Positions 25,184-64,000 of a stretch of DNA of 64,000 nt are shown one piece after another. Source of the DNA: a virus. A program made the position numbers and the translations under genes. The notes beneath the pieces are model-generated. The model was not told where the DNA came from, made no database searches, and worked only from the letters and a program-made list of their open reading frames with translations. The stretch spans positions 33,154-97,153 of IMG/VR virus record IMGVR_UViG_3300026557_000002. One strand, given 5' to 3'. Every line of letters begins with the position of its first letter. Position 1 is the first letter of the stretch.

Positions 25184-25187
25184 AAGT

Positions 25188-25660: not shown

Positions 25661-25665
25661 AGGTC

Positions 25666-26133: not shown

Positions 26134-26344
26134 TAGAAATCTCCTCACTAGTCCACCGACGCCATCTTTGTTTGCAAAACGGGCACATCCACTCGCTCGT
26201 GCCATCGTATTCGGCGGTCTCGATGCCAATCAAATGGCTGAAAAACTCGCCTGCGAACAAATGCTTGTCTTTTTCAGGGATCTCGCCAGCGACCCAACTC
26301 TTATGACACTTAGGGCACTCTCGAGCCTGACTTGAAAATTTCAT
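26126..26344 (-). CDS. Zinc-ribbon protein
   Basis: The 72-residue product has CPKCHKSW near residue 10 and [11 protein letters not shown] near residue 54, a four-cysteine zinc ribbon flanked by Trp and Arg. It overlaps gmd upstream (ATGA) and the endolysin start by 8 bases. Likely nucleic-acid binding; precise role unknown. Confidence 0.6.
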
Positions 26345-28538: not shown

Positions 28539-28734
28539 AAGACTTCTGACCTAGCTCTTCGTCGACGGCTTGGATCAAATCGTTTCTGTGCTGGTTCGCG
28601 GTATTCGTGACGCGAGTCGCGTCCGCTATCTGCTTGTCTGTAGCCTTCGGGTCTCGCTTCCTGTCTTCGGCCATCCAGATACGGATATTCGCAATCGTTA
28701 GGGCGTCTATTAAATTTCCGATACTGACTTTCAT
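28501..28734 (-). CDS. DUF4254-like protein
   Basis: The 77-residue product has IDALTIANIRIWMAEDRKRD and the conserved TNTANQHRNDLIQAVDEEL, a pattern found in DUF4254-type proteins that occur with glycosyltransferases. Its role is unknown. Overlap with both neighbours is consistent with membership in the sugar operon. Confidence 0.6.
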   Translation of the reverse strand: MKVSIGNLIDALTIANIRIWMAEDRKRDPKATDKQIADATRVTNTANQHRNDLIQAVDEELGQKSYGQGSSKLYGKV

Positions 28735-29717: not shown

Positions 29718-30250
29718 CGTATCCACCAATCCTCGAATGGCTTACTGCCGACTTCTACATCATTTATTACACAAGACGGAGAAGGCACGTCAGAAACCGC
29801 AAGTTTGTAGCCTTGTGAAAGCATGAACTCCCGGATGGCATTCCGATGCTCTAGCTTGATGCCCATGCTGTCGTGTTCGATCGTGGCACAACGAAATGAA
29901 ACGCCAGCCGCGACCAAATTACGGAGCACATCTAGCTCTTCGCCGTACAAATCCAAGGACAGGTAACCGATTTCAAGTGACAAACCACGCGATGTTAGCG
30001 CTTGGCGCCAATCGATGTTTAAAGCATTTGCACATATAGCCGGACATTTTCGGTACTGATTCCAAGAAGATATAAACAAGTCTTCAAAATCAACCGCTAG
30101 GCCTTCCCAGCCGGCGAGTTCCAAGATAAAGGTGTTATTGTCGCTGAAGGGTTCCATGCACCCGATATCCAAGAATGTCTGGTTTCCGCCTGAGTTCTCG
30201 AGCGCGAACAAATCTTGACCAACTTGACTCCACGACTTTTTAGCGGCCAT
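29714..30250 (-). CDS. FkbM-family SAM methyltransferase (1)
   Basis: The 178-residue product begins SWSQVGQDLFAL, followed by the SAM-binding TFLDIGCMEPFSDNNT and IGYLSLDLYGEELDVL, all typical of FkbM methyltransferases, which methylate sugar hydroxyls. SQGYKLAVSDVPSPSC and the C-terminal FEDWWI complete the fold. It is short but has the core. It overlaps its homologue upstream by 11 bases. It could O-methylate one of the transferred sugars. Confidence 0.8.
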   Translation of the reverse strand: MAAKKSWSQVGQDLFALENSGGNQTFLDIGCMEPFSDNNTFILELAGWEGLAVDFEDLFISSWNQYRKCPAICANALNIDWRQALTSRGLSLEIGYLSLDLYGEELDVLRNLVAAGVSFRCATIEHDSMGIKLEHRNAIREFMLSQGYKLAVSDVPSPSCVINDVEVGSKPFEDWWIR

Positions 30251-30878
30251 ACTGCTCCAGCTTTGCTATCACATCTTCCGGATAGCACGATTGACTTTTA
30301 ACTTTTTCAATAGTCGCAGGATTGAAATATCCTAGGTCGAGATACCAATCCTCGAATGGAGAATCCACAATATCAGGATGGCGAACAAAGATGTCCGCAC
30401 ACGCCAGAACGTATCCTTGGCTTAAAAAGAGTTCTCTTTGAGGCGCTCTGTACGTATCGCCATATTGATAGGCGTCATGCTCGATACCAATGACCCTAAA
30501 CCGATAGTTGGCGTTAAGCACGAGCTTGGCAACATCCAAGTCCAGAACATCCACGTCGAGAGATAGGAAGTCTATAGAATAAGGCATATGCGCTTTCGCG
30601 AACTCTTTGTTGTAATCGATTTTTGTCGCATCTTGGTTGAGATAAGTACAATGCTTCCTATCCGCATAGCTGTCGTTATATCGGCTTTCTAATTCGACAC
30701 AGATGCCTCTCCAGTCCAATTTCGAATCTAAGTAATGCGAGTTATTATGAAACTTAGAATCCGCCGATCCGATGTCAACGTACGTGCCGACTACTTTAAA
30801 ATGAAACAAACGGGCACAGAACTCGTCGAGCCTAGAGCCGCTATGGCAGTTGGGATAATTCGTGAAAGATCGCTTCAT
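30240..30878 (-). CDS. FkbM-family SAM methyltransferase (2)
   Basis: The 212-residue product has TYVDIGSADSKFHNNSHYL (SAM loop), SIDFLSLDVDVLDLDV and FRVIGIEHDAYQYG. It shares the LFLSQGYVLACADI and SPFEDWYLDLGY ends with the adjacent gene, so the pair looks like a tandem duplication that diverged. Substrates should be sugars of the phage glycan. Coupled to the upstream glycosyltransferase by ATGA. Confidence 0.8.
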   Translation of the reverse strand: MKRSFTNYPNCHSGSRLDEFCARLFHFKVVGTYVDIGSADSKFHNNSHYLDSKLDWRGICVELESRYNDSYADRKHCTYLNQDATKIDYNKEFAKAHMPYSIDFLSLDVDVLDLDVAKLVLNANYRFRVIGIEHDAYQYGDTYRAPQRELFLSQGYVLACADIFVRHPDIVDSPFEDWYLDLGYFNPATIEKVKSQSCYPEDVIAKLEQYGR

Positions 30879-31654
30879 CCAATCCTACCTTTCAGCCACT
30901 CGGTCTTTCTTTGATGAAAGTCCGCGGAGCGATGATCCCAGTTGCTACCGGACCTGTAGTGCAGAATTACTTTTTCGCCCAAGCGGAACTCGTCATAACT
31001 GAATTCCGTGAAATGGTTCTTGCGGCAAGCCAAAATATCAAGGTCTAGATGCGCCTGAAAGTAATGGTGCGTCTGACCACCTACGTCTACAGGCGTATCT
31101 TGAATTCTCCCACACCACCAATTCAAAGTCTCTGGACTAGGTAATCTAGCCATGTCGGCCAACATGAAGGTAGGCCACATGTAATGAAAGACTCTTCCGT
31201 CTTCATGCTTTTTGCCATCCGAGATGTTAACCATTACGTGCGGGTTCAAGTAGTCTGTCAGCTTGATGCCCTCGACCAAGAATACGTCTGAGTCCAAGAT
31301 ACCGATGGGGCCTTTTTCTTTCGAAATATGATTCTCCCAAGCCCAGCACAAAGCGTAAGCATGAGCGACATTAGCATTCATGTACTTCCCTTCATGATTA
31401 AGAATAGAGCAGCTCAGCTCAATTTTCTGGCAACGAGCAAGTAAATCTTCGTTCTTTTCGACATCAATCATCTGGACGCCGAGTGCTTTGGCTTGTTCGT
31501 GAAGCCCGGTATAATTTCCCCCGAAGCCGTTGTCATACCTAGCGTTGTTAAAAACAACGAATTCAAAGTCTTCCTGAAGGTGTCTCCGGAACGAGCGCAG
31601 TTGGAGGCCGATGAAATCTGGTCGGTTAGAGCCAAAAGTGAAAATCATAATCAT
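30875..31654 (-). CDS. GT-A-fold glycosyltransferase
   Basis: The 259-residue product starts with IMIFTFGSNRPDFIGLQLRS. It has a central ILDSDVFLVEG (DxD metal motif near 119-121) and ends with YRSGSNWDHRSADF, which may bind the acceptor. No membrane anchor. Family assignment beyond the GT-A fold is uncertain. It lies between the FkbM pair and the dehydratase, and acts in the cytosol. Confidence 0.65.
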   Translation of the reverse strand: MIMIFTFGSNRPDFIGLQLRSFRRHLQEDFEFVVFNNARYDNGFGGNYTGLHEQAKALGVQMIDVEKNEDLLARCQKIELSCSILNHEGKYMNANVAHAYALCWAWENHISKEKGPIGILDSDVFLVEGIKLTDYLNPHVMVNISDGKKHEDGRVFHYMWPTFMLADMARLPSPETLNWWCGRIQDTPVDVGGQTHHYFQAHLDLDILACRKNHFTEFSYDEFRLGEKVILHYRSGSNWDHRSADFHQRKTEWLKGRIG

Positions 31655-32649
31655 GAAAGAAATCCGTTGTCATATAATAGACAAGTTAAAGCATCTTTAT
31701 CCATTATTACGTCATTTGAACTAAATTCTTTTTGCAGATCTGTTCTGGTTTCAAATTGTCCTAATACGGACGAGATCACGTAATACCTGCCTCCGTCGAC
31801 TGTTCGAGAAATTTCTTCTTCACTAACGAGGATCTCGTGAATTTTCTCGCCTGGACGAACGCCGTCTATCCTGATTTCTATATCTCGTTCTCCGATCAAA
31901 CAATGCACCACATCCATCACTCGTGCTGACGGTATCTTGGGAACCCAGGTCTCGCCAGAATTCCCGAACTGGACGGTTGCAAATACGGTATCAACCGCAT
32001 GATCTAATGAAAGAAGAAAACGAGTCATATCTCTGGTTGTTACCGTGACGGGGCCCCCTCTCTTAATTTGTTCTTTAAAAAGCGGGATTACAGAACCGCG
32101 GGAAGCTAAAACGTTGCCATATCTGACACAGACAAACTTTGTCTGGGGGCAGCGCTCACCAGCGCTCAGAAAAATACGCTCTTGAATAGCTTTCGTCATG
32201 CCCATCACGTTCACGGGCGCACAAGCTTTGTCAGTGGATATCCCAACGACCGTCTCGACAACAAGGGCTTGTTCACTGATAGCGCGTACGATATTCTCGG
32301 CGCCGTTTATATTAGTCTTGACGGCCTCGTAAGGAAAATATTCGCAGGACGGGACCTGCTTCGAAGCTGCGGCATTAAATACGATATCCGCTTCTTGTAA
32401 AACACTAGCCACTGACGCATAATCCCGAATGTCCCCAATACGAAAACGAACCCGTCGCCTGAATTCCTCTCTTAGCTCGGGATCCATAGAATACTTAGCC
32501 ATCATGGCTGACTGCTTGGCCTCGTCGCGAGAAAAGACCGTAATCTTGTCTACGGTGCCGCCTTCTCCTGATAACAGCCGGCGAAGCAGCACGCTTCCCA
32601 AAGAGCCGGTTCCACCTGTTATCAAGATGCGCTTATTTTGAAAAAACAT
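31651..32649 (-). CDS. NDP-hexosamine 4,6-dehydratase (WbpM/FlaA1 type)
   Basis: The 332-residue SDR has TGGTGSLGSVLLRRLL (11-26). The region STDKA followed by NVMGMTKAIQE has the Met-for-Tyr (SMK) catalytic arrangement described for WbpM/FlaA1 enzymes rather than the usual SYK. HAVDTVFATVQFGNSGETWV and RPGEKIHEILVS are hallmark segments. It should act on UDP-GlcNAc or a similar sugar to give a 4-keto-6-deoxy-hexosamine. It lacks the membrane domains of WbpM and so is a soluble enzyme. The reductase gene precedes it. Confidence 0.85.
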   Translation of the reverse strand: MFFQNKRILITGGTGSLGSVLLRRLLSGEGGTVDKITVFSRDEAKQSAMMAKYSMDPELREEFRRRVRFRIGDIRDYASVASVLQEADIVFNAAASKQVPSCEYFPYEAVKTNINGAENIVRAISEQALVVETVVGISTDKACAPVNVMGMTKAIQERIFLSAGERCPQTKFVCVRYGNVLASRGSVIPLFKEQIKRGGPVTVTTRDMTRFLLSLDHAVDTVFATVQFGNSGETWVPKIPSARVMDVVHCLIGERDIEIRIDGVRPGEKIHEILVSEEEISRTVDGGRYYVISSVLGQFETRTDLQKEFSSNDVIMDKDALTCLLYDNGFLS

Positions 32650-33451
32650 AGCCGTCTCCCTCGTCGTCTGTCTTCTTTTGCCAGTACAATAGCTCTTCCA
32701 AACCTAGCGGAGCCAATGTCGTAGCCGCCCTGAACTTAACCGCCAACAAGCTTCGGTCGCATTTCTCAGCCTCTACAGGCAAGATATTTACATCACTTTT
32801 TCCGTATGTCTTCTGGAACAATTTTAAAAGATCAAACTTTGAGATACGTTGAGAAGCCACATGGTAAAGGCCCGAGAGCCTGCTCTCTCGCTTCAAAAGG
32901 TCCCCAACAACGTCCGCAAGCCAGTTCGTGGTGACACCCGTAAAGAACGCGTTCTTGTATCCCTGAACATCTCCCGTTTGGCGCAAGAACCATTCCAGGA
33001 GTCCTTTGTAGTTATTTCGCTCTCGACCGACGATAGATGTCCTAATCGTCAACGTGTTTGGCACCTGCGTAACTTCGCCAGCCAGCTTTGTCTTGCCGTA
33101 AAGGTCTACTGGATCCGGAGTATGAGTTTCCATATAGCGCCCGAGATTGCCGGAGAATACACAGTCTGAACTGAAGTGAACTAAGTATGGGCACATGGCC
33201 TGAAGGTCATGTGGCAACTTAGCGTTGACGGCCTCAAGCAGCCTGGGGTCTTGCTCGCGTTGTTTGATGACGCCGACGCAATTCAAGACCGCATCCGGCT
33301 TAAAAAACTTGATGACCTTTTCCACGCTTGAGGAGTCCGTAGCGTCGAACGACGGCCTGGAGACGCCGATAACGGTCTCGAACTTCGGGCGCAGTCTCTC
33401 GACCATCTTGTGCCCGAGCATGCCGGTTGAGCCTAGGACGAGGACTCTCAT
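32633..33451 (-). CDS. RmlD-like NDP-sugar reductase
   Basis: The 272-residue SDR has LVLGSTGMLGHKMVERL (nucleotide loop), the strand HFSSDCVFSGNLGRYME and YGKTKLAGEV (Tyr/Lys pair), as in RmlD/WbjC-type 4-reductases. It lacks a cupin tail. Its gene overlaps that of the dehydratase, so the two likely form a two-step keto-reduction pathway (for example a fucosamine- or quinovosamine-type sugar). It could instead reduce the Gmd product. Cytosolic NADPH enzyme. Confidence 0.8.
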   Translation of the reverse strand: MRVLVLGSTGMLGHKMVERLRPKFETVIGVSRPSFDATDSSSVEKVIKFFKPDAVLNCVGVIKQREQDPRLLEAVNAKLPHDLQAMCPYLVHFSSDCVFSGNLGRYMETHTPDPVDLYGKTKLAGEVTQVPNTLTIRTSIVGRERNNYKGLLEWFLRQTGDVQGYKNAFFTGVTTNWLADVVGDLLKRESRLSGLYHVASQRISKFDLLKLFQKTYGKSDVNILPVEAEKCDRSLLAVKFRAATTLAPLGLEELLYWQKKTDDEGDGYVFSK

Positions 33452-34401
33452 CTAGACTCCTGGGTGATTCGGACGGCTTCCAAAAGACCGTTCAATTTTG
33501 TAACATACGTGTGATTTTGGGCAACTTCGTCCATCAACTTATGCAGGGTATCAATCTTGATTTTAGGGAGGGCTTCCTTGGCGTCGTAGAAAAGCTGACG
33601 TGTTTCCTCGTTGAAAATCAAATCAGGGAAAATCTTCTTGGACGCTATGTTGTTCGTAATTGGGAAGCAACCGTAACTAATATTTTTTGCAGTCCTGCAC
33701 GGAAAATAATGGACGTTATCTCGGTTGTGGTAGGTGTCCCCAATCGCGGGTGCCATATAGGACGCCTTGACGAGCCATTGATTCTCCTCAACAGAGACTG
33801 CGGTTCCGCCGCTGTACCCGCCGTAAGCGTTGAAGTTAATCCCGTTCTCAAGACAGGCTTTCTTGAAAGGGTTGTGAACATTGCCGTAGATGGTGCCGAC
33901 GAAATTGACATCCCGGCTCTCTTGGTTGAATACCTGGGCGGTCGGCTTGTTGGCCTCAATCTCGTGCGGCAGAAGATCCGTGCCCCAATACAGCACGGTA
34001 GACGAATACTTTTCGTGTCTCTGCAGAGATAGATATATATCGTGCCCGACCTTGATATCGTTGTCTACGTTAGTCGTCAGAGTATAGACGCCGTAATTCA
34101 TGAAATCGTAAGAACCGATATCACCGAAGAGCTCCTTGACTTTTTCGTCAGTATTATGGCAGACATAGAACGTGTCCTTGCGCTTCGGCATCAGTCTCAA
34201 GTCGGCCACGTTGACGGTCAAGAACAGCGAATTACTAAAATCGATATTGTCTAAGTTATCTTGGCCGTCAAGCCACAGGACCTCGCGGTCAGGGAACTTG
34301 AACTTGAGCGCGCGGTACCAGGCTTCCTGAATATGTTTGAACGTGTTGTAGCTCGATTTGAAGCCCCAGATAACGAACTTGTTTGTCTTTAAATCTATCA
34401 T
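33448..34401 (-). CDS. Probable GT-B glycosyltransferase
   Basis: The 317-residue product starts at the ATG overlapping the GT11 stop. The C-terminal half includes PCRTAKNISYGCFPITNNIA and LIFNEETRQLFYDAKEALPK, which look like the donor-binding half of a GT-B enzyme. FVGTIYGNVHNPFKKACLEN in the centre may be the domain junction. The first 150 residues are not familiar. I infer a glycosyltransferase from these segments and from its position inside the island. Confidence 0.55.
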   Translation of the reverse strand: MIDLKTNKFVIWGFKSSYNTFKHIQEAWYRALKFKFPDREVLWLDGQDNLDNIDFSNSLFLTVNVADLRLMPKRKDTFYVCHNTDEKVKELFGDIGSYDFMNYGVYTLTTNVDNDIKVGHDIYLSLQRHEKYSSTVLYWGTDLLPHEIEANKPTAQVFNQESRDVNFVGTIYGNVHNPFKKACLENGINFNAYGGYSGGTAVSVEENQWLVKASYMAPAIGDTYHNRDNVHYFPCRTAKNISYGCFPITNNIASKKIFPDLIFNEETRQLFYDAKEALPKIKIDTLHKLMDEVAQNHTYVTKLNGLLEAVRITQESR

Positions 34402-35174
34402 AGTCGTACCCACCTCTCAGGGCAAATGTCCCGAGCGTCTTCCGTACATGTCGGGCCGAACCAATTCTTCGGTGCGATCACAGTTCCGTAAGGATGTTTA
34501 AAATAGGCTGCCCACCAGCTGAACGAAGAATTTGCCGTAATTACATGATCGCAGAGGGACATCGCGTAAATATCCGTCGCTTCGGTACCGGGTTCTACAA
34601 CGACATCCCGACCCAAAGAAAAATCCGTGTAAAAAGTCTCGGAGACCCACTTAGGATTATCAGTGAAAAAGAAGAACTTTGGATGACTGATGCAGTCACG
34701 GATATATTGTCTGGCGGGACCATAATATCCGTAATCAAGATTCCCGTGAAAACTCTTATGCGGCTCTTGAATATAGTCCCCACGTCGAACATGAATCGCG
34801 ACCGCGTTCTCTTCGGCCAAAATCTGGCTCTCTAAATCTTTGCGGCGATTAAGAGGATTCAAATTTCTTAGTTCTTCTCGGACGTTTTCAAAATATTTCT
34901 CAGATTGCCAGTAGCCTTGTAAGACGTCTCCATCTCGAATGTTATCCACTAGCTTCTGGTTGTACGGCAAGCCGACTTCGCGAACGGTAGGCACCATTCT
35001 AGGCGACAATCTAAAGGCGTCTATATCCCACTGGCCTAGGGAGAACGGACGATTAACCGCCAACCGAGTGGCGTCGAATTGTACCTCGACACCGAGCCGC
35101 TTCGCCTGTGCCCGCCCAAAGGCGTACTGAAACATTTGATTGCCTATGCCGCCTTGCAAAATCACAGTGATCAT
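34398..35174 (-). CDS. Alpha-1,2-fucosyltransferase-like enzyme (GT11)
   Basis: The 258-residue product begins ITVILQGGIGNQMFQYAFGR (2-21), the GT11 N-terminal signature. It contains HVRRGDY (128-134), the conserved GDP-binding motif, and the C-terminal ITANSSFSWWAAYF. It transfers a deoxyhexose, typically fucose from GDP-fucose, to the 2-hydroxyl of an acceptor. The start overlaps the GT2 stop (ATGA). Donor synthesis fits with gmd in the same island. Family identification is secure; the exact sugar is inferred. Confidence 0.92.
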   Translation of the reverse strand: MITVILQGGIGNQMFQYAFGRAQAKRLGVEVQFDATRLAVNRPFSLGQWDIDAFRLSPRMVPTVREVGLPYNQKLVDNIRDGDVLQGYWQSEKYFENVREELRNLNPLNRRKDLESQILAEENAVAIHVRRGDYIQEPHKSFHGNLDYGYYGPARQYIRDCISHPKFFFFTDNPKWVSETFYTDFSLGRDVVVEPGTEATDIYAMSLCDHVITANSSFSWWAAYFKHPYGTVIAPKNWFGPTCTEDARDICPERWVRL

Positions 35175-35833
35175 CGCGCCGTCCATGTAAGTTCAGGATG
35201 TAAAGACTTCATGACTTCAATCATCTTGCCTCGGTTCATAGTCGAGACCATGGATGTCTGCTTCCTGCGGTAAAAGAACAAAGCGTCGTTCAGGACCTGG
35301 ACTCGCCAGCCGCGTTTCAAGATTGAGACCCAGAGCTCCCAATCTTCGCAGCCTTCCGCCATCACGGATTTGTATCCGCCAGCCTCCAAGATCGCTTGCT
35401 TCCGAATCAGAGAGCACACCGGCATTCCGTTATATGCTGTAATCTGATGAAGCCCTGTATGCGTCGGGCGAAGGCGATTTGTATGCGTACCGAAGTATGT
35501 CATATCGGTCGAGACCACGCCGATCCCAGGACCCATTAGTGGCACAGTCTTCTCAAGGTAATGCGGATCGATTTTGTCATCTGCGTCTAAAGGCAGGATT
35601 AATTCGCCCGTCGAGAACTCTATTCCAGAGTTGCGCGCTGCCGCCAACCCGCCATTCACCTTATTGACGATCTTGACAGAAAATTTCTCAATCTCGCCCA
35701 GAGATCCGTCCGTTGAGCCGTCATTGACAACGATAACCTCAAGGTCTTTATACGTTTGCGCTAAAGCAGAACTGATCGCTTCCGCGACGTATTCGCGCAT
35801 ATTAAAGCACGGAATCACGATGCTGACTCTCAC
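35171..35833 (-). CDS. GT2-family glycosyltransferase
   Basis: The 220-residue product has the classic SIVIPCFNMREYVAEAI, VVNDGSTDGSL and LPLDADDKIDPHYLE (DxD) of GT2. EDWELWVSILKRGWRVQVL is the catalytic-base region. No membrane span. Shorter than many GT2 proteins but complete. It is in the centre of the island and should add a common sugar such as glucose, galactose or GlcNAc. Confidence 0.88.
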   Translation of the reverse strand: MRVSIVIPCFNMREYVAEAISSALAQTYKDLEVIVVNDGSTDGSLGEIEKFSVKIVNKVNGGLAAARNSGIEFSTGELILPLDADDKIDPHYLEKTVPLMGPGIGVVSTDMTYFGTHTNRLRPTHTGLHQITAYNGMPVCSLIRKQAILEAGGYKSVMAEGCEDWELWVSILKRGWRVQVLNDALFFYRRKQTSMVSTMNRGKMIEVMKSLHPELTWTAR

Positions 35834-36528
35834 CTTCCGTCCTTTTTAGTCAAGGCCAGAATCTTTGGAGTCGGATTGATGCCTGCGGCCTTCCACTTAT
35901 CTAGGTAGTGCAAGTTGGCCCCTTCTGGGTAACAATAGGATGGGTCCAAGATTTTGGCTGGCGGATGATCCAATAAATAGCGATTCAGATGAGACTCGTC
36001 ATGCCATACGGCTACGATGTAACGGTTGAGATCAAAACTAATATTTGACGCAAGTTCTTCTGACATCTTTAAAAAGGCTTTCGCGTTCCCGCCATTAAAG
36101 CCGCCGCAGAAATACTTATTATTTTTCGCCGGATTAATATAGGCACAAGATTCCACTCGCCTCTCTGGTGTGCCACTTTCGTTGATGTAACCAGGATGGA
36201 GTGTCCCGACCACACCGTCGGCAAAAACTTCCTCCCCTACTGGGGCCACGAATCTCATATCTACATCTGCATAAAAGACTTGATCATATTTCTCCAATAA
36301 TATCTTTTGTCCGAGGAAAGTATGATAGCGATAAAGCGTTTCGTTCGGATAGCCCAAGGCCCCTTTGGTTATGACGAATTTCGCGTCAAATTGACTGGCG
36401 GCTCGTAAGGTATCCGTCCAAACGACAGCGTCGTGCTCAACAAAAAATTCCTTAGCGGATTCCAGTAGCGGATTCACGTATTTGTGATATTTCTCACCCG
36501 TCGCTATCACTAAAAGAGCGGTTTTCAT
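35830..36528 (-). CDS. GT6-family (ABO-type) glycosyltransferase
   Basis: The 232-residue product has the GT6 set: GYPNETLYRYHTFL (59-72), metal-binding YADVDMRF with DVD at 88-90, CGGFNGGNA (141-149) and WHDESHLNRY (175-184). The last includes the Glu used by human A/B transferases; ABO has WHDESHLNKY in the equivalent place. GT6 enzymes add alpha-1,3-linked Gal or GalNAc with retention of configuration. The start is the ATG forming ATGA with the upstream gene. GT6 is rare outside vertebrates, though bacterial and cyanophage members are known. It is cytosolic, lacking the Golgi anchor. Confidence 0.92.
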   Translation of the reverse strand: MKTALLVIATGEKYHKYVNPLLESAKEFFVEHDAVVWTDTLRAASQFDAKFVITKGALGYPNETLYRYHTFLGQKILLEKYDQVFYADVDMRFVAPVGEEVFADGVVGTLHPGYINESGTPERRVESCAYINPAKNNKYFCGGFNGGNAKAFLKMSEELASNISFDLNRYIVAVWHDESHLNRYLLDHPPAKILDPSYCYPEGANLHYLDKWKAAGINPTPKILALTKKDGR

Positions 36529-37220
36529 CGGCTCTCCGCATACTTTCTTTTCATCCAATCATAACCGACCTTCTCGTCGTACCCTTGGCCATACCTACTT
36601 GAAGGGAAGTGGTCGGTAAATGGCTCAGGTGTCGAGTCCCCAATCATAATCTTGCCTTCGGCCGCAAGCGAGCCCATAACTTGGCCGACCCAAAGATCCT
36701 CTGCCCAGCTAGACGGATACGAAAATACGACTTCGTTCAGGGCTGCTCGGCTCAGGAAGTACCCGAAGCCTCCGCTGGCCCAGGGGTACGCACGCTGATG
36801 CATCTCCTTCTCGCCCTCGCGGTTGACGGCTTCGTACCTAAAGGTGCCTGAGGTCTTGCCGTTAAAGTGTCCGAAGTAATCGTAAGAGGTGAACGGCGAG
36901 GCAAGAAGCTTCTTGACGTTGACGAAGGTATCTGTATCACAAAGAAAAATGAAATTTACCATCTTGCCTTGGAACCACTTGCATATCTCGCGGGTCTTCT
37001 TCGGCAAGCTATTGTAATCATCGTCGCAGGCAACCCGAATCTCGTCTGACTCGAAATTGACGACTCGGGCCGAGTTTTGCTCTTGCTGGCCGACGAAGAA
37101 CTTCACCGGGATGCCGGCAGCCCTGGCGTCTTGGCCCCAGGTTGAGCGGATCAAGTTATGGTCGCCGCGGTCTTTGTGCTGGAGACAGGACTTGACAGCG
37201 ATAATCAGCCTGAGGTTCAC
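36525..37220 (-). CDS. GT31-like glycosyltransferase (2)
   Basis: The 231-residue product is taken from the GTG that overlaps the DHH-gene stop, with GGAGG nine bases upstream. The ATG nine bases earlier would sit directly on the GGAGG. It has NLIRSTWGQ (the R-x-x-W segment of beta-1,3-galactosyltransferases), IFLCDTDTFVN (DxD near 95-97), YDYFGHFNG, ASGGFGYFLSRAA and EDLWVGQVM. This is the GT31/fringe-like pattern without a Golgi anchor. A paralogue lies beside the lysis cassette. It could form a beta-1,3-linked Gal or similar residue in the same glycan. Confidence 0.78.
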   Translation of the reverse strand: MNLRLIIAVKSCLQHKDRGDHNLIRSTWGQDARAAGIPVKFFVGQQEQNSARVVNFESDEIRVACDDDYNSLPKKTREICKWFQGKMVNFIFLCDTDTFVNVKKLLASPFTSYDYFGHFNGKTSGTFRYEAVNREGEKEMHQRAYPWASGGFGYFLSRAALNEVVFSYPSSWAEDLWVGQVMGSLAAEGKIMIGDSTPEPFTDHFPSSRYGQGYDEKVGYDWMKRKYAESR

Positions 37221-38101
37221 TTGACACATCCTCCGGACAACCGCTCTTCTTCGGTCAAGATATTCCTGCCAAGGATGCGATCAAGAACTTGCCGGCCGTA
37301 CTCAAGACTTAGCTGGAAGCCGGAAGCATGAAGATGCCCGCCGCCGTTAAACACTTTCGCAATCGCCGAGACATCTACGTCGCCTTCGGAACGTAGGCTG
37401 AACTGGATCATGCCATCCGCTCTCTCAAACCAGGTCAGGCTGACATCATGCGTCTTCGCTAACTCGTTCCCGATCTCCGAACAATTCAGATACAGAGCGT
37501 TCACGACCGCCGTCTTGTATCCTTGGAAGAAGCCGACTTGGGCTTGCTTAACGGCTTCGCGGACGTAATGGTTAATATGGGCTAAGGCTCCTTCGCCTTT
37601 GTAAGCTGCGTCCTTGGCTTCCATATCATAAAGACCGTCCCATGCTTCGGCAGTTAATTCCTCCTTAGACCAACGCAGCTTCCAATTCCACAGATCCCGA
37701 TCTTCCACATATTCGACCATCCATGGCCTAGCGGGAGGGTAATGAGTATCATTAAGCCTTGGGGCATTTGTGTCACTCCCGAATAGGTGGTCCCACGTTA
37801 ATCCGGCACCAGAACGTTTCATATCAAAGATAGCGTATGATGCGCCTTCAAGGACAGCTTGTGCTGTTTTGTGGTGATCAAGTATCTTGAAAGATTTCGC
37901 CAGCGAATTCAATTTGTCATTTAGTTCGCGGGTCCTGAGACTGAAATCCAACATCAGGACATCTTTGCCTTTGACTTGGGAGAAATCAAATTCTGCCCCG
38001 TGATTGAGCGGGACTAGTTTGGCCTCGGGGTATCTCTTGCTTGCGATAAAGGCGGCACACCAGCCGTCTGGGCATGCGCCGTGGTAGTAAACGATATCCA
38101 T
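37217..38101 (-). CDS. DHH-family phosphoesterase
   Basis: The 294-residue product starts at the ATG sharing a base with the upstream stop, with GGAGAAGAAATA before it. DHH motifs: YYHGACPDGWCAAF (5-18), LDFSLR (51-56), ILDHHKTA (73-80), and the C-terminal DHHA1 signature GGGHLHASGF. Relatives such as NrnA degrade nanoRNAs or cyclic dinucleotides. An enzyme of that type within a sugar island is unexpected; it may clear pAp or nucleotides or counter cyclic-nucleotide defence signalling. The substrate cannot be told from sequence. Confidence 0.85.
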   Translation of the reverse strand: MDIVYYHGACPDGWCAAFIASKRYPEAKLVPLNHGAEFDFSQVKGKDVLMLDFSLRTRELNDKLNSLAKSFKILDHHKTAQAVLEGASYAIFDMKRSGAGLTWDHLFGSDTNAPRLNDTHYPPARPWMVEYVEDRDLWNWKLRWSKEELTAEAWDGLYDMEAKDAAYKGEGALAHINHYVREAVKQAQVGFFQGYKTAVVNALYLNCSEIGNELAKTHDVSLTWFERADGMIQFSLRSEGDVDVSAIAKVFNGGGHLHASGFQLSLEYGRQVLDRILGRNILTEEERLSGGCVK

Positions 38102-38892
38102 TATTTCTTCTCCTGATAATCTACGATCCCATTCGCCATGATGTACGTCTTGATCCCGCGCTTGACAAAACATGGGCGCTCTGGGAAGAGCGCGCGGTTA
38201 CGGAACTTTTTATACTCCGCGCTATCCGTTCCTTGCTGCTGATTTATGTTTGCTCCCGGGACGAAGCCGACTTTGAAGCCAGCACGGCGCATATCAACAA
38301 ACCAAGCACCATGTTCTCCCCCACCGATTTTTACATCGTCGTCCCAACGAAGTTCTTTAAAAGTCTCGCGACGGAACAGCGTATAGTTCACTGTCAGGTC
38401 TACATCGAAGACCTCAAGGAATGAACTCTCTTTGACACGTTCGTCAATCTTGGCATCATGTTCTGCTATGATGCCTTTATTCTCTGACAAGAACGTCTCG
38501 TAAGGTCGATTGTCTACTCGCCCCGAGACAGCATAATACCTAGGGTGCTTTTCAAGAATTGCCAGCATCTTCTCGATTCCCACGCGAACGCTCGGATCAG
38601 CGAAATCGAAATCATCACTAGCCACAAGAAGGTACGGCGTATCCAAGGCGTCGATGATCGCATTACTCATGGCTCCAAATCCGGCGTCGAAATTTAATTT
38701 CAAAAATTTCCAATCATTGTAGGCTACATAACCTGCGAAATTGATATTTTTTGTAAAAGTTTCATGACCGCAATCGGCTACAATAACCTTAACATCCGAT
38801 CCCCAACTCACTATGTCGCCGAGAGTCTTCAGTAACTTTTCGTCGCGGAGAAACGTCTTGATTCCGATGCTGATTTTAGATAGATCTAACAT
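38101..38892 (-). CDS. GT-A glycosyltransferase (GT12/GT2-like)
   Basis: The 263-residue product starts ISIGIKTFLRDEKLLKTL. It contains LVASDDFDFAD (acidic metal motif around 91-97) and IGGGEHGAWFVDMRRAGFKV, resembling GalNAc-transferase (GT12-like) active-site regions with a GEH motif. It is the first gene of the island by direction of transcription. No anchor. The sugar is unknown, possibly a GalNAc-type transfer. Confidence 0.7.
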   Translation of the reverse strand: MLDLSKISIGIKTFLRDEKLLKTLGDIVSWGSDVKVIVADCGHETFTKNINFAGYVAYNDWKFLKLNFDAGFGAMSNAIIDALDTPYLLVASDDFDFADPSVRVGIEKMLAILEKHPRYYAVSGRVDNRPYETFLSENKGIIAEHDAKIDERVKESSFLEVFDVDLTVNYTLFRRETFKELRWDDDVKIGGGEHGAWFVDMRRAGFKVGFVPGANINQQQGTDSAEYKKFRNRALFPERPCFVKRGIKTYIMANGIVDYQEKK

Positions 38893-45820: not shown

Positions 45821-46095
45821 GCTTTATTTTCGTTCTTGTACTTCAGCAGTCGGCGGGCGATATCCCACGCACAATCTAGGCTTGCCTTAGTTGGGAGGAT
45901 TCGCTCGTCAAACAGCTTGAACTTCTCCGCTACCTCTAACAAGCGGGAGAGATTAAAGTCATCAAATTTAAAGTCTTTCCGGCCTTCGCGCCACTCAATA
46001 AATAGTGGAAGCTGATCGGCAGCGCGCATCTTTCGGCTGACCGCATCAGCCTTTGGCTCCGGCTGTCTTGTTTCTTTTAAAAAGTAGATGCTCAT
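45817..46095 (-). CDS. Unknown 92-residue protein
   Basis: The product is helical and charged (LLEVAEKFKLFDERILPTKA, DIARRLLKYKNENKA). It shares a base with the polymerase stop (TAATG-type junction). No motif. It could be a polymerase-associated factor. Confidence 0.5.
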   Translation of the reverse strand: MSIYFLKETRQPEPKADAVSRKMRAADQLPLFIEWREGRKDFKFDDFNLSRLLEVAEKFKLFDERILPTKASLDCAWDIARRLLKYKNENKA

Positions 46096-47120
46096 TATCC
46101 CTTCCTATAAAACGTGTCTTGAAATCCATCTGCACCTAAAAGTAAGCCGGGGGCCCAAGAAACGGGTCGGCTCATAATGTCGATCATGTCATCAACTCGA
46201 GGAGAAAAAGGATCATCCAAAACTAAAGCCACGCCCTCGTCATGTACATGACCTATAATTGGCAAATCCGCTTCTTCCAGCGCCAACAGCTTTTCGGCCA
46301 AAACATCCCGGGCAATTCCCTGAACCCCGTTTTGATACATCTTCGCGCCGTGCGATTTAGCGGTTGCCCACTTTCCAGTAACTTGATCAGCGTTAGCGTA
46401 AACAAGTCCTGGACGCCAAACTTCATGGCCTTCAGAATCCTCCCAAGGCATCTTGGACATCTCCATCCGAGCGTCCATGTAGTGCAAACGACGACCGCTG
46501 GGAAGCTGCATTCTTAATAATGGATGACGGCCCTGAATATTCAAGCGATCAAACAATATGCATCCATTTATACCAACGCGACGCTGGGTATTCGGGTGGT
46601 CAACGTGCAGAACTTCTTTGAAGGCGTCCTCAAACGCATACCAGCATGTCGGAATTTCTGGATAGGAGTCACGGAACATCCGCGCCACCATATGCGCGGT
46701 CTCCTGCGACATCTCAACGCCAGCCTTCCAAGCGTATCCCCACAGACCTCCGCGAACACGATCCCAGACCCACTCGCCTGTGATAGGATCTTTGTACTTG
46801 CTCTTACCACGCTGCCAATCGCCGCCACTTTGACCATAGATAGCCGCCAAGACACCTGGTTTTGCCATCTGGCGCATCAACTTTGCTGCTGCGGCTACCG
46901 CTTCGTCTGCAGACTTTGAATCAATATAAATCCGATCATACGACAAGCAGTACATCTTGGCCGCGAACGCAATGTACGGATCTTTCCCGTTTCTATGCCA
47001 CTTCCCGTCCGGTCCGACGCAGGGTGTAAACACATCCATCAGCGAAGGGCAGTTTGCCAACCAAGCTCCGACTCGAGTCTCGATCGCATTCTCATCACAA
47101 ATTTGCAATCGGGTCTTCAT
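46095..47120 (-). CDS. DNA polymerase family A, C-terminal part (catalytic palm/fingers)
   Basis: The 341-residue product begins directly at motif A (CDENAIETRV, with catalytic Asp9). It continues with motif B (RQMAKPGVLAAIYG, with Arg83, Lys87 and Tyr95) and motif C (HVHDEG, with His293 and the catalytic Asp294 and Glu295). All three catalytic motifs are therefore intact. The exonuclease, thumb and first palm strand are encoded by the preceding gene, which ends within 4 bases of this ATG (ATGA). The frame is closed upstream by a TGA nine bases earlier, so this is not one long frame. It should form an active enzyme only with the N-terminal subunit. Confidence 0.9.
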   Translation of the reverse strand: MKTRLQICDENAIETRVGAWLANCPSLMDVFTPCVGPDGKWHRNGKDPYIAFAAKMYCLSYDRIYIDSKSADEAVAAAAKLMRQMAKPGVLAAIYGQSGGDWQRGKSKYKDPITGEWVWDRVRGGLWGYAWKAGVEMSQETAHMVARMFRDSYPEIPTCWYAFEDAFKEVLHVDHPNTQRRVGINGCILFDRLNIQGRHPLLRMQLPSGRRLHYMDARMEMSKMPWEDSEGHEVWRPGLVYANADQVTGKWATAKSHGAKMYQNGVQGIARDVLAEKLLALEEADLPIIGHVHDEGVALVLDDPFSPRVDDMIDIMSRPVSWAPGLLLGADGFQDTFYRKG

Positions 47121-48334
47121 TCAAGAACCTCAAACACTGTGCGAATTGTGTTCTTGATAACGAGCAAAACACTTCCGGGCTTCCCAGTCTTTGGATCCTT
47201 GAAGCGCTCTTTGATGCCTTCGTAGTCTTCAGCGAGAATCAGGGTGCGTGCATCAGCAAGGTTTTTACGGCTCTCAAACATTTTATCCGGCCGGGCCATG
47301 TTGTGGAGCTGCACGGCCCCTGAACTCCATCTTCCGCAACGACTTGACCCCATAAAGATAAACATATTGCGGAGACGACCATCAGGGGATACCTGTCTCA
47401 AAATCTTTGCTAGTTTGGTGTACGTGGTTGATGCGGCTTCTCGACGTTTAGTCAGAACGAGTCTACATTCTTCGGACAATACAATAGCGGGATCCTTCAA
47501 AACGGCGTCGACAAAATCTTTGCCTAAGGTATTATAAGGATATCCTCGTTCTTTCGCCCACGGCAAAAGCTGTTGTACGCTGTTTGAGTTCTCTAAACCT
47601 GTAATCTTGTCTTGGGCTGCGATAGCCTCTTCTTTGGCACGTACACCTAGCTTATGTGCCTTCTGGACAAATTCGACGTTCACAGGCATGCCGCGATCAT
47701 TCACGATCTGATCGAATATCCAAAGACGCTGTTCAAACGGAGGAAGTGGAAGAGCCTCGAGGATGATTTCTCTTCGTTCAACCTCCTCCTCAGCGATTAT
47801 GTCCTGCTTACAATAATCCGCAAATTCTGCGAACTCAACGGGATGGCTATTCCAGTCATTGAAGTACATCGTGGATTCGATGCCTTTTTTCTTCCTCGTC
47901 CACTTCGGTTCACAGAAAATCTTGATAAGCGCAGAGCCGCGCTTGTCTTTCATCAAGTTTTCAGGAAGGGTTAGAATTTCGCCTACCTCTTCGAGACTGG
48001 CTGGAAGGCTTAAATAACGGGCGCCTACTTGGGGGTCGCTAAATCGAGAGGGATGAACTAGTAGATCGCATTTGTATCTCAGAATATATCGTTCAAAGGC
48101 ACAATTAAAAGCAGATATGGTTACGCTCGGATCTAAAATCGCGGCTCTGAGTTCTGCTGACATCGGACCTAGGTGAGGAAACCAGATATCCACAACTTTG
48201 GATCCCGGCATCTTGTAGGCAAGCATTAATACCAGCGTAGACTTGTGTGTGGCGTAATTGTATAAGCCCACAGACTCCTGTCCACCGAGGATCAACTCAC
48301 TACGCGTCTCGAAATCGAGTCGCAAAGTCTTCAC
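47117..48334 (-). CDS. DNA polymerase family A, N-terminal part (3'-5' exonuclease and thumb)
   Basis: The 405-residue product has exonuclease motif I LDFETRS (Asp7, Glu9), motif II FNCAFERYIL and motif III YCKQDIIAEEE, all intact. Thumb and first palm segment follow. GRWSSGAVQLHNMARP is the region that normally precedes motif A, and the protein ends IRTVFEVLE. In unsplit relatives the chain would run straight into motif A, which here begins the next gene. With the C-terminal gene it makes a complete 746-residue polymerase. A natural split, an ATGA-coupled translation product, or a frame-disrupting change are the options. Confidence 0.9.
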   Translation of the reverse strand: MKTLRLDFETRSELILGGQESVGLYNYATHKSTLVLMLAYKMPGSKVVDIWFPHLGPMSAELRAAILDPSVTISAFNCAFERYILRYKCDLLVHPSRFSDPQVGARYLSLPASLEEVGEILTLPENLMKDKRGSALIKIFCEPKWTRKKKGIESTMYFNDWNSHPVEFAEFADYCKQDIIAEEEVERREIILEALPLPPFEQRLWIFDQIVNDRGMPVNVEFVQKAHKLGVRAKEEAIAAQDKITGLENSNSVQQLLPWAKERGYPYNTLGKDFVDAVLKDPAIVLSEECRLVLTKRREAASTTYTKLAKILRQVSPDGRLRNMFIFMGSSRCGRWSSGAVQLHNMARPDKMFESRKNLADARTLILAEDYEGIKERFKDPKTGKPGSVLLVIKNTIRTVFEVLE

Positions 48335-49131
48335 TTCTTGACTCCGACGCTAGCGATTCGCTTATCCTGCAATTCCTTATAGGCTGGGTTCAATTCACAG
48401 CCGAGATACTGACGACCGTGTTGAAGCGCGACTTGGGCGGTGGTTCCGGAACCCATGAATGGATCGAAGACGATGTCGCCTGGGCGGCTACCCGCCAAGA
48501 TGCAGGGCTCAATCAAATCGGGCGGAAAGGTGGCAAAATGAGCGCCTTTAAACGGCTTGGTAGTTACATCCCAAACACTCCGCTTATTGGCTCCGCGCTC
48601 TAAATAATTTCCTTCGTCTTCGTTACCGGAGTGAATTCGTGTATTGTATCCTGCCTGTTTATTCCGGCCTCCGAAGCACGCCTTCATAGGTCCATTAGTC
48701 TTTCCTGGGACTCTCTCGCTACCCGCTTGCTGCTCTAGCGTCGGCTGCTCTAGACGTGCCTTGGTTGACGGCTTACATTCCGTTGCTATAGCGTCTCCAT
48801 CAAAGTAATACTTAGGTTGCTTAGTTAAAAGAAAAATATATTCGTGAGCCTTAGTGCAGCGATCTCGAACACTTTCTGGCATCGGGTTTCGTTTATACCA
48901 AATGATATCTTGTCTGAGATACCAACCGTCAGCCTGCAAAGCGAAAGCGACTCGCCACGGAATTCCAATCAACTCCTTAGGCTTTAAAAACGGATGCTTG
49001 TAGCTAGACGGCGGACGATCCCTGTTCTCATCCCACCCTCGACGCGGAAGATAGTCGCAATCTTTGGGACGCTGATTTGAAGATTTTTTATCTAACTCTG
49101 GACGATTACCTGCGTTACCCACGACCCCCAA
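48331..49131 (-). CDS. DNA methyltransferase (N4/N6), C-terminal part
   Basis: The 266-residue frame carries VFDPFMGSGTTAQVAL (SAM motif I) near the C terminus, WRVAFALQADGWYLRQDIIW and HEYIFLLTKQPKYYFDGDAI, which belong to the beta-class amino-methyltransferase fold. It lacks motif IV, which is in the overlapping frame to the right. It opens with TTG and seems not to be an independent enzyme; it is the rest of a frameshifted gene. The junction is a run of five G. The product methylates adenine N6 or cytosine N4 if joined. Confidence 0.8.
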   Translation of the reverse strand: MGVVGNAGNRPELDKKSSNQRPKDCDYLPRRGWDENRDRPPSSYKHPFLKPKELIGIPWRVAFALQADGWYLRQDIIWYKRNPMPESVRDRCTKAHEYIFLLTKQPKYYFDGDAIATECKPSTKARLEQPTLEQQAGSERVPGKTNGPMKACFGGRNKQAGYNTRIHSGNEDEGNYLERGANKRSVWDVTTKPFKGAHFATFPPDLIEPCILAGSRPGDIVFDPFMGSGTTAQVALQHGRQYLGCELNPAYKELQDKRIASVGVKK

Positions 49132-49385
49132 TAGCTGTCCCCTAAATTAAGCCAAAGCGTGCCGTCATCCGTGAGCAAGTCTCTAACTAGCCGAAGTGTG
49201 GAAACTAATTCGGAGACAAATAGCTCAGGAGTCTTCTCTTGACCCATCTGGCCATCTACACCATAATCTCTCAAGCCAAAATACGGCGGACTTGTAACAC
49301 AAGTCTGGACCTTGACGCCTTCCCAAATCCAGTGTTTCATCAATTCGCGGCAATCTCCGAATTCAATCAAGTTACTCATCATCAA
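49092..49385 (-). CDS. DNA methyltransferase (N4/N6), N-terminal part with motif IV
   Basis: The 97-residue frame has TSPPYFGLRDYG (motif IV, SPPY at 32-35) and LWLNLGDSYWG. After this it turns into WVTQVIVQS and stops. In the -1 frame the sequence continues GVVGNAGNRPEL. The break lies in GGGGG (positions 49125-49129); one extra G or a -1 slip would fuse the two. It could be a real frameshift, a sequencing error in the homopolymer or programmed. The start overlaps the primase stop. Confidence 0.8.
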   Translation of the reverse strand: MMMSNLIEFGDCRELMKHWIWEGVKVQTCVTSPPYFGLRDYGVDGQMGQEKTPELFVSELVSTLRLVRDLLTDDGTLWLNLGDSYWGSWVTQVIVQS

Positions 49386-62143: not shown

Positions 62144-62161
62144 TGGTCCTCCATGCATTGC

Positions 62162-62190
62162 ATTAAATTACTTTTGCATCTTGGCGTCAA
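62162..62190 (-). promoter_or_regulatory. Strong leftward early promoter
   Basis: TTGACG, 17 bases, TTTAAT on the minus strand, five of six matches in each box. Predicted start about 12 bases before the zinc-ribbon ATG, so the leader is short. It is the best promoter match in the window and should drive the early genes to the left. Confidence 0.7.
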
Positions 62191-62191
62191 T

Positions 62192-62455
62192 AGTACTTCT
62201 GTACTGGTACCACCCCATTTCTAATCTCGTTTTACTCCCTAGTGCGAGAGAAAAATCTATATAGAGGGGTCAAGACACGAACTCTCGGTACCCCGTGAAG
62301 TACTCCCCCGTTCAGGATCCTGATCTGGAAAAACTCGTTAGCTAAAAACATAGCGGTTTTCAAAATCTGAGTGTTTTTCACAGCAAATGTCAAAATATTT
62401 TAGTCCTATCGGTACTAGTACGTAAAAATTTCGTAGGTCTAGCGTACTGGTACGC
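62192..62455. promoter_or_regulatory. Cluster of GTAC dyads (possible operators)
   Basis: GTACTGGTAC occurs at 62201-62210 and again inside GCGTACTGGTACGC at 62442-62455. GTACTAGTAC, a perfect palindrome, lies at 62412-62421. AGTAC-TTCT-GTACT (62192-62205) and TCAGGATCCTGA (62312-62323) are further dyads. The first copy lies about 11 bases upstream of the early promoter -35. Repeated related dyads around a promoter resemble phage repressor/activator sites. No repressor gene is identified in the window. Confidence 0.5.
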
Positions 62456-62515
62456 AATAGCAATCTAATGGCCGAATTGTCTAGGCACACTTCACCTATC
62501 TGCCGGCCGATTAGC

Positions 62516-62611
62516 CTACTTGTGAGGCATGCGGAATACCGCGTCTGGTAGGCAGAATGTCAGAATGCCGGCCAGAGCGAACAGGTAGACAAATAGCATT
62601 AGGGTTTCCAC
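62516..62611 (-). CDS. 31-residue single-span membrane peptide (GTG start)
   Basis: AGGAGGATC precedes a GTG; the frame METLMLFVYLFALAGILTFC then LPDAVFRMPHK is one membrane span. The short spacing of the site leaves the exact start uncertain. Isolated between the regulatory region and the iterons. Role unknown. Confidence 0.4.
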   Translation of the reverse strand: METLMLFVYLFALAGILTFCLPDAVFRMPHK

Positions 62612-62622
62612 GATCCTCCTAT

Positions 62623-62694
62623 CATGGCCAAGATAACTAACATGGCCAAGATAACTAACATGGCCAAGATAACTAACATGGCCAAGATAACTAA
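62623..62694. repeat. Four tandem 18-bp iterons
   Basis: CATGGCCAAGATAACTAA is repeated four times without interruption or mismatch. A fifth, partial copy begins the following palindrome. Exact short tandem repeats next to a palindrome and hairpins are typical of replication-initiator or partition sites. No gene crosses them. Confidence 0.85.
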
Positions 62695-62748
62695 CATGGC
62701 CATGTTAGCGCGAACGCGCGCTATAATGAACGCTACGCCGTCTAGCGT
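62691..62748. repeat. 18-bp palindrome plus two hairpins beside the iterons
   Basis: CTAACATGGCCATGTTAG (62691-62708) is perfectly self-complementary. AGCGCG-AACG-CGCGCT (62707-62722) and ACGCTA-7-TAGCGT (62730-62748) form stems. A TATAAT lies between them at 62722-62727 but with no good -35. Together with the iterons this is an origin- or operator-like cassette. Confidence 0.7.
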
Positions 62749-62784
62749 CCATTCTGGCGAACGTTAACAGGGTTTAGGTGTGAC

Positions 62785-63021
62785 TTACTCGCCTGCAGGG
62801 ATAAGCTGGTTAACAAGCTTGGAATGATAGGGTACGATTCCACACATACCCCATATTTTGGTATACTCGCCGTCCCGCGCGTCAACAAAGAATGCGTCAT
62901 AATCGCCCGCGGCCGTGCCTAGATGCTCCCTGATCGCTTGCACGTCTTGAGAGTCTGAAACGAATTGTAGATGCTGGCCTAGATTCGCTACTGTTCGCAT
63001 TTTGTTCTGACTCAATACCAT
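62785..63021 (-). CDS. Unknown 78-residue protein
   Basis: The product has an N-terminal helix and a beta C-terminal part (GDYDAFFVDARDGEYTKIWG). GAGGGTGT precedes the ATG. No motif. It might be a DNA-binding early protein near the origin. Confidence 0.5.
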   Translation of the reverse strand: MVLSQNKMRTVANLGQHLQFVSDSQDVQAIREHLGTAAGDYDAFFVDARDGEYTKIWGMCGIVPYHSKLVNQLIPAGE

Positions 63022-63079
63022 ACACCCTCTTTTCTTAGATTAGATTCTTGGAACGTAACAGGCAGAGCAAGGCGAGTAC

Positions 63080-63463
63080 CTACAGACAGGGACTTGTAAA
63101 GACTTGCCCGTTATCCCCTACGTAGAGGTCACACTCGCCGAAACTGTGCGCGATCTCTGTCAAGGCGTCGCCGATTGCCTTTGGATAATCTCCGTCCCAA
63201 AAGCCAGCGCCGTGATGATTGCGGGTGAGCCAAAAGTCGTGTGCTATCGGGCAGTGTTCAAAGTCTCCCGATACGTAATCTAACGCATTGACGGCCTTAA
63301 CATACTCTGCTTGGAAACGTTCGCAGTCTGCCTCAAATTGTGCAAGAGTTTCTGGCGATATCTCTGCATTTGAATATTTCGAATCATCCAGCGGGATCCC
63401 GAATTCGTCCGTGCTAGACCATAGAGCAGTTTCAATATAAGACTGGACAAACTTGCTAGGTAT
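63080..63463 (-). CDS. Conserved-looking protein starting at ATA
   Basis: The frame encodes 127 residues. The only plausible start is ATA (63463), with AAGGAGG four bases upstream and an in-frame TAA just before; no ATG, GTG or TTG is near the start. The sequence FVQSYIETALWSSTDEFGIP and HDFWLTRNHHGAGFWDGDYP looks like a common small phage protein family of unknown role. It could use a genuine ATA start, or a change from ATG in the source. Confidence 0.65.
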   Translation of the reverse strand: MPSKFVQSYIETALWSSTDEFGIPLDDSKYSNAEISPETLAQFEADCERFQAEYVKAVNALDYVSGDFEHCPIAHDFWLTRNHHGAGFWDGDYPKAIGDALTEIAHSFGECDLYVGDNGQVFTSPCL

Positions 63464-63522: not shown

Positions 63523-64000
63523 CTAATCGTAATTCTCTGCCTCAATCCGGGTAAGGAAAAAATGGATTCCTCCTCCGCATTCTGTGAACCTGTCCGTATT
63601 CCAGTTATCGCACCGAACTACTTCGCCTTTGACGTAGGTTGTTTTTGAGTCGTGTTTAGAGACTCCCTTAGTCGCGCCGATAACGTCTAGGACGGTCACA
63701 TACTCTGCACGGCATTTCCGGCCCGTAGCATTAGACCGTTTAGCGTCCACAGGTATTTGAACCTGAACCAAAACACTATCTTGGCATAGTTTCCAGCCGA
63801 TGAATGATCCGTGTTCAGGAACGATAGAAGTTTGCGCTAAAGCTAATTCCGCATTCTCCGCACTGCACAGGTCCGCACCGCGCAGGTCCGCACCGTGCAG
63901 GTTCGCACTGGACAGGTTCGCACTGGACAGGTCCGCACCGCGCAGGTTCGCACTGGACAGGTTCGCACTGCACAGGTCCGCACCGCGCAGGTCCGCACCG
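63523..64000 (-). CDS. Pentapeptide-repeat protein, truncated at window end
   Basis: The frame runs from the window edge to a stop at 63523 with 158 residues visible; the start lies outside. The first part shows nine tandem pentads of the A(D/N)LxG/S type (ADLRG, ANLSS). A C-terminal domain follows (FIGWKLCQDSVLV, DAKRSNATGRKCRAEYVTVL, GGGIHFFLTRIEAENYD), a combination also seen in phage/bacterial pentapeptide proteins. Pentapeptide proteins can mimic DNA and protect gyrase or bind nucleic-acid-interacting proteins. The 15-base DNA periodicity is coding, not an array. Confidence 0.8.
   Translation of the reverse strand, partial: GADLRGADLCSANLSSANLRGADLSSANLSSANLHGADLRGADLCSAENAELALAQTSIVPEHGSFIGWKLCQDSVLVQVQIPVDAKRSNATGRKCRAEYVTVLDVIGATKGVSKHDSKTTYVKGEVVRCDNWNTDRFTECGGGIHFFLTRIEAENYD

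What the first reader, a model, noticed from the sequence alone, without database searches (positions are those of the whole stretch)
62623..62748. Iterons, palindrome and hairpins: candidate origin
Seen: four exact 18-bp repeats, an 18-bp perfect palindrome that extends the last copy, and two stems. Inference: initiator-binding origin or centromere-like site located beside early genes. No initiator of the RepA/O type is recognised; the prim-pol or one of the small proteins may bind.
Basis: partly seen in the sequence, partly recalled or inferred. Interest (0 to 1): 0.66.

Follow-up and report, generated by a model that had tools for sequence, protein, structure and literature searches.

The report
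Phage tandem dyad-site array, probable operator
A 97-kb soil-type phage carries five back-to-back 18-base protein-binding-like sites, the last a perfect palindrome, just upstream of a tiny gene; it is a real and locally unique control element, more likely an operator than the proposed replication origin, though neither role is shown.

Summary
Window 62619-62708 is five contiguous 18-bp sites in register: one variant, three identical and a terminal perfect palindrome. Two stems follow. The motif occurs nowhere else in the 97,153-base record, and this is the record's only perfect palindrome of 16 bp or more. The array lies in a mostly non-coding stretch that also holds three GTACTRGTAC boxes (the only three in the record), an AT-rich tract and a DnaA-box-like site. 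The flanking genes run on the minus strand, and the array ends a few bases before an AGGAGG ribosome site.

An origin is not excluded: the circular GC-skew minimum is 2.2 kb away, but it coincides with divergent transcription. The array is absent from every relative found, including one sharing the replication module. A 43/54-match three-site array, also contiguous at 18 bp, lies directly upstream of a winged-helix/nucleotidyltransferase operon on a Paraburkholderia megaplasmid, and scrambled-unit control arrays match nothing. I therefore favour a cooperative operator array (about 0.42) over an origin (about 0.25), with RNA-leader, coding, partition and neutral-repeat readings behind. Binding protein unknown. 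New member of a known kind; moderate interest.

The parts
62619..62636 (.). 18-bp site 1 (CTATCATGGCCAAGATAA, one base off the consensus); its first bases overlap the CCTCCT at 62615-62620 (minus-strand AGGAGG)
62637..62690 (.). 18-bp sites 2-4, three identical contiguous copies CTAACATGGCCAAGATAA
62691..62708 (.). 18-bp site 5, perfect palindrome CTAACATGGCCATGTTAG; only perfect palindrome of 16 bp or more in the 97-kb record
62706..62723 (-). stem-loop TAGCGCG-loop-CGCGCTA, no T-run after it so not terminator-like
   Evidence: sequence; folds; terminator scan
62726..62752 (-). second stem-loop (10-bp arms, one G-U on the minus strand)
62516..62611 (-). tiny ORF, GTG start, one predicted membrane helix (METLMLFVYLFALAGILTFCLPDAVFRMPHK); ribosome site AGGAGG at 62620-62615 lies in the loop of a 7-bp hairpin CCAUGAU-AGGAGG-AUCGUGG
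62599..62703 (-). open frame through the array, MAMLVILA(MLVILA)x3 MIGGSWKP, no ribosome site; stop overlaps an in-frame ATG of the next ORF (TAATG). Probably not a gene
62785..63021 (-). upstream gene, DUF6839 (PF20767), 79% identical to its relative in L008
62412..62421 (.). GTACTAGTAC box, overlapping the spacer of a minus-strand promoter-like site (62426 to 62397)
62444..62453 (.). GTACTGGTAC box
62201..62210 (.). GTACTGGTAC box
62372..62431 (.). AT-rich tract, within the least stable 0.6% of 60-mers of the window; contains a DnaA-box-like TTTTTCACA at 62374-62382 (three such sites in the record)

Best explanation
The array is an operator-type element: five abutting 18-bp dyad sites bound cooperatively by a dimeric DNA-binding protein (phage or host, unidentified) that covers the leader or promoter of the leftward (minus-strand) early genes and controls the tiny membrane-protein gene that begins a few bases beyond it, and possibly the genes after it. 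Shown: the sites, their uniqueness to this locus, their place between two co-directional genes immediately 5' of a ribosome site, and a related array in the same kind of place on a megaplasmid. Inferred: protein binding, cooperativity, repression, and the identity of the target promoter.
For: Sites are contiguous, single-locus and far above chance. Flanking genes are on the minus strand and the array abuts AGGAGG. A three-site array at the same 18-bp register, matching the palindrome at 13, 15 and 15 of 18 positions (43/54; other phage genomes peak at 28-31), lies directly upstream of the start of an operon encoding a protein with a winged-helix domain (weak PF13545 match, below cut-off) plus a nucleotidyltransferase (PF12281) on Paraburkholderia pSYMBR3459. 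V. vulnificus plasmids carry an 81%/70-nt match at an unannotated place. Two scrambled-unit control arrays found nothing in the same plasmid collection. In both arrays the site nearest the start codon is the more degenerate. A second set of boxes (GTACTRGTAC, 3 in 97 kb, all within 253 bp), one overlapping a promoter-like spacer, marks the adjacent stretch as regulatory. Absence from a relative with the same replication module (G003) fits a rapidly changing operator better than an origin.
Against: No sigma70-like promoter was found on the minus strand beside the array, although the host's promoters may differ. No repressor gene was recognised nearby, and no homologue of the megaplasmid winged-helix protein or nucleotidyltransferase was found in the record. 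In relative G001 the same gene pair has no array. Similarity between short periodic arrays inflates BLAST E-values.
Confidence: 0.42

Rival explanations
1. Replication origin: the five sites are iterons for an initiator, and the AT-rich tract 62372-62431 is the unwinding element, an arrangement like the lambda origin (four O-binding iterons beside an AT-rich tract).
For: Detrended circular GC skew has its minimum at record position 864, 2.2 kb from the array, and its maximum at 46.5 kb. AT-rich tract, DnaA-box-like site and extra boxes lie within about 500 bp. The distant cultured relative Tunturi_3 has its largest non-coding stretch (78677-80336), with a 13-bp x5 tandem repeat, inside its leftward unit about 18 kb upstream of the terminase gene; the window's array is about 17 kb upstream. 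Lambda-type iterons: PMC7466680.
Against: The skew minimum coincides with divergent transcription, so it need not mark replication; in Tunturi_3 the skew minimum (63.0 kb) is not at its repeats. The array is absent from G003, which shares polymerase, helicase and prim-pol in order, and from all other relatives. No initiator recognised. The divergent region L006:1458-2807, whose counterpart in G003 is also repeat-rich, is an equally good origin candidate.
Confidence: 0.25
2. RNA element: the minus-strand transcript folds the array into a long hairpin, and a 7-bp hairpin presents AGGAGG in its loop with the GTG start in the stem, controlling translation or mRNA stability.
For: RNA z = -4.5; SD hairpin -8.1 kcal/mol, weakened to -4.6 if the variant base of site 1 is set to the repeat consensus.
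Against: Tandem dyads fold by construction. No Rfam family above its gathering score. No homologues, so no covariation test possible. In a longer stretch the minimum-energy fold does not keep the small SD hairpin.
Confidence: 0.1
3. Coding repeat: the 18-bp unit encodes MLVILA repeats of a 34-residue membrane peptide on the minus strand.
For: Unit length is a multiple of three, the frame is open, very hydrophobic (19-residue mean 3.4), and its stop overlaps an in-frame ATG. Relatives do carry 18-bp arrays that are coding hexapeptide repeats.
Against: No ribosome site before its ATG, coding score near zero, a stable stem directly upstream. The related plasmid array lies at an unannotated, apparently non-coding place.
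Confidence: 0.08
4. Neutral recent tandem duplication of an 18-bp stretch.
For: Copies are nearly exact, not conserved in relatives, and a short-unit array can arise by slippage.
Against: The last copy is completed to a perfect palindrome, a second motif set is clustered beside it, and a related array exists elsewhere.
Confidence: 0.1
5. Partition (centromere-like) site for an extrachromosomal prophage.
For: Tandem dyads resemble centromere arrays in form; an integrase is encoded at 16033-16914 so the phage may be temperate.
Against: No ParA or centromere-binding protein found; the only ParB-like match is the N-terminus of a MT-A70 methyltransferase.
Confidence: 0.05

Closest known systems
Lambdoid phage origin (O-protein iterons), PMC7466680
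   Same: Four or more short imperfect-dyad repeats (about 19 bp there, 18 bp here) with an AT-rich tract nearby.
   Different: Here the repeats abut, the AT-rich tract is about 190 bp away, they do not lie inside an initiator gene, no O-like protein is known, and relatives lack them.
Autoregulatory inverted-repeat operators of winged-helix/nucleotidyltransferase operons (AbiEi type, PMC7319586)
   Same: Dyad sites in the promoter/leader; the most similar array found elsewhere lies in front of such an operon on Paraburkholderia pSYMBR3459.
   Different: No such operon in this phage record; the Paraburkholderia proteins do not match PADLOC or NCBIfam models, so AbiE membership is not established there either.
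Tunturiibacter phage Tunturi_3 (PP885686), PMC11924767
   Same: Distant relative with the same genome plan (97.6 kb, circular record, structural genes one way, replication genes the other) and a repeat-bearing non-coding stretch at a similar distance from terminase.
   Different: Repeat unit and sequence are unrelated (13-bp ATAAACGTACTCA); no homology found between the flanking genes.

Membership tests
Lambda-type iteron origin | Several initiator-binding repeats, each an imperfect dyad | tested here: inconclusive
   Repeats present; unit dyad 12/18 not significant; binding not testable
Lambda-type iteron origin | Adjacent AT-rich unwinding tract | tested here: inconclusive
   62372-62431 among least stable 0.6%, but about 190 bp away
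Lambda-type iteron origin | Initiator of the O type encoded at the locus | tested here: not met
   No O/RepA-like protein among the proteins scanned
Lambda-type iteron origin | Replication starts here | not testable with these tools
   Skew minimum 2.2 kb away but confounded
Operator array of an autoregulated operon | Dyad sites in promoter/leader just 5' of a gene | tested here: met
   Array abuts the AGGAGG of the 62516-62611 ORF
Operator array of an autoregulated operon | Downstream operon encodes the DNA-binding protein | tested here: not met
   Downstream products are a tiny membrane peptide and small proteins without recognised DNA-binding domains
Operator array of an autoregulated operon | Expression changes on binding | not testable with these tools
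   needs reporter assay
Partition site (parS/parC type) | Cognate partition ATPase and centromere-binding protein | tested here: not met
   none found

The most novel reading that the evidence does not exclude
The phage array is a decoy operator: it copies the operator of a host winged-helix/nucleotidyltransferase (toxin-antitoxin-like) operon, as seen on Paraburkholderia pSYMBR3459, and titrates that regulator during infection.
Probability: 0.05. Interest if true: 0.65.

Novelty: new member of a known kind. Interest (0 to 1): 0.36.

Why it matters
If an operator, it would be a first recognised control site in this little-studied lineage of ~100-kb phages (a distant relative infects Acidobacteriota), and the matching plasmid arrays suggest a shared, undescribed DNA-binding protein. 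If an origin, it would show that phages sharing one replication module use unrelated origin sequences.

Tried and rejected
Exact and degenerate scans of IMG/VR and GTDB genomes: no further copies (the own record is left out). G003 repeat peak at 24.9 kb: a coding 72-bp duplication in a 117-residue protein. 18-bp arrays in G012 and G013: coding GNAxV(Y/S) hexapeptide repeats, not iterons. Rfam microRNA matches: below gathering score and driven by the repeats. Plus-strand ORF of MAKITN repeats: no ribosome site. Transposon-end idea (tandem transposase sites): no supporting annotation or literature hit. Shared CGTACT half-site across relatives: not enriched. Portal search of GTDB genomes for a host or prophage: nothing. 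A unique 18-bp palindrome near DUF6839 in G001 (15554-15571) is suggestive, but about 1.5 palindromes of 16 bp or more are expected by chance per genome of this size.

Full report
WHAT IS THERE. The window is bases 33154-97153 of a 97,153-base virus record. At 62619-62708 lie five abutting 18-bp sites; sites 2-4 are identical, site 1 differs by one base, and site 5 is a perfect palindrome, CTAACATGGCCATGTTAG. The motif is confined to this locus. Two stems follow at 62706-62723 and 62726-62752, with no T-run.

SURROUNDINGS. The flanking genes are on the minus strand. Upstream is a DUF6839 gene (62785-63021). On the downstream side the array abuts AGGAGG (62620-62615), followed by a GTG-started 31-residue ORF with one predicted membrane helix. 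That ribosome site can sit in the loop of a 7-bp hairpin. Beyond the ORF, 62144-62515 is non-coding and holds three GTACTRGTAC boxes, the only three in the record, one of them overlapping the spacer of a minus-strand promoter-like site. It also holds an AT-rich tract and one of the record's three DnaA-box-like sites. This looks like a regulatory stretch, whatever its exact role.

THE GENOME. Structural genes and terminase read rightward, replication genes leftward. The record begins and ends inside pentapeptide-repeat DNA, as does relative G001; a same-species contig (99.8-99.96%, G014) also stops there, which suggests a circular map cut at a repeat. Terminase places it nearest, among phage records, to Tunturiibacter phage Tunturi_3, an Acidobacteriota podovirus of 97.6 kb, though only at 24% identity (PMC11924767). 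The host of the window's phage is unknown.

ORIGIN TEST. Detrended skew has its minimum at 864 and maximum at 46.5 kb, the array lying 2.2 kb from the minimum. Both extremes coincide with switches of gene direction, so this cannot separate replication from transcription. G003 shares the replication module in order but has no such array; its repeat-rich non-coding region is the divergent-gene region with TCTCANNNTGAGA dyads, which appears to correspond by its flanking genes to L006:1458-2807 of this record. None of nine relatives tested with the palindrome or twelve tested with the unit carries the array; one has a single three-mismatch site. Among the relatives examined, Tunturi_3 is the only other one with a non-coding tandem array of three or more copies, unrelated in sequence. 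An origin therefore remains possible but is not favoured.

OPERATOR TEST. A blastn search of plasmids found an 81%/70-nt match on three V. vulnificus plasmids and an 82%/50-nt match on Paraburkholderia pSYMBR3459. On the latter, three contiguous 18-bp sites match the window's palindrome at 13, 15 and 15 of 18 positions and begin directly upstream of the annotated start of a two-gene operon: a 381-residue protein with a weak winged-helix match and a nucleotidyltransferase-fold protein. Two scrambled-unit arrays used as controls found nothing in the same collection. Autoregulation through inverted repeats is known for the AbiEi type of such operons (PMC7319586); membership of the Paraburkholderia pair in that family is not shown. 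No homologue of either protein is in the searched parts of this phage record. This comparison is the main reason for preferring an operator reading; it rests on short periodic matches and only two controls.

CONCLUSION. A real, single-locus, multi-site DNA element; most likely a cooperative operator in the leader of a leftward early gene (0.42), next an origin (0.25). Binding and regulation are inferred, not shown.

Noticed in passing
record ends; window 63857-63998 and L006:12-223: Both ends of this record and of relative G001 lie in pentapeptide-repeat DNA; same-species contig G014 stops there too. Suggests circular genomes broken at the repeat.
   Followed up: partly
L135:15116-15739 and L140:4078-4533: Relatives carry long 18-bp coding arrays (GNAxVY hexapeptides) with a shared C-terminal stretch, perhaps counterparts of this phage's pentapeptide-repeat gene next to DUF5758.
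   Followed up: partly
L086:28677-30336 (Tunturi_3 78677-80336): 1.66-kb unannotated non-coding stretch with a 13-bp x5 nearly exact tandem repeat and other repeats; origin candidate in a cultured phage.
   Followed up: partly
L006:1458-2807: Divergent non-coding region with GAGTATTTA repeats; counterpart in G003 (L078:10756-12060) has TCTCANNNTGAGA dyads. Candidate early promoter or origin region.
   Followed up: partly
window 46095-47120 and 47117-48334: Two adjacent overlapping ORFs match successive parts of one DNA polymerase family (phrog_17): a split polymerase.
   Followed up: no
window 48331-49131 and 49092-49385: DNA methylase (N6_N4_Mtase) in two overlapping ORFs matching successive parts of the domain.
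   Followed up: no
window 63079-63463: 127-residue conserved gene behind AGGAGG without ATG/GTG/TTG at its start (ATA likely); in L008 a tiny membrane ORF appears to start at ACG.
   Followed up: no
window 24506-38892: Cluster of sugar-nucleotide and glycosyltransferase genes, including a family-6 glycosyltransferase (35830-36558).
   Followed up: no
NZ_CP014638.1:23621-23690; NC_009703.1:33837-33906: Unannotated 70-nt stretches 81% identical to the array on V. vulnificus plasmids; context not fetched.
   Followed up: no
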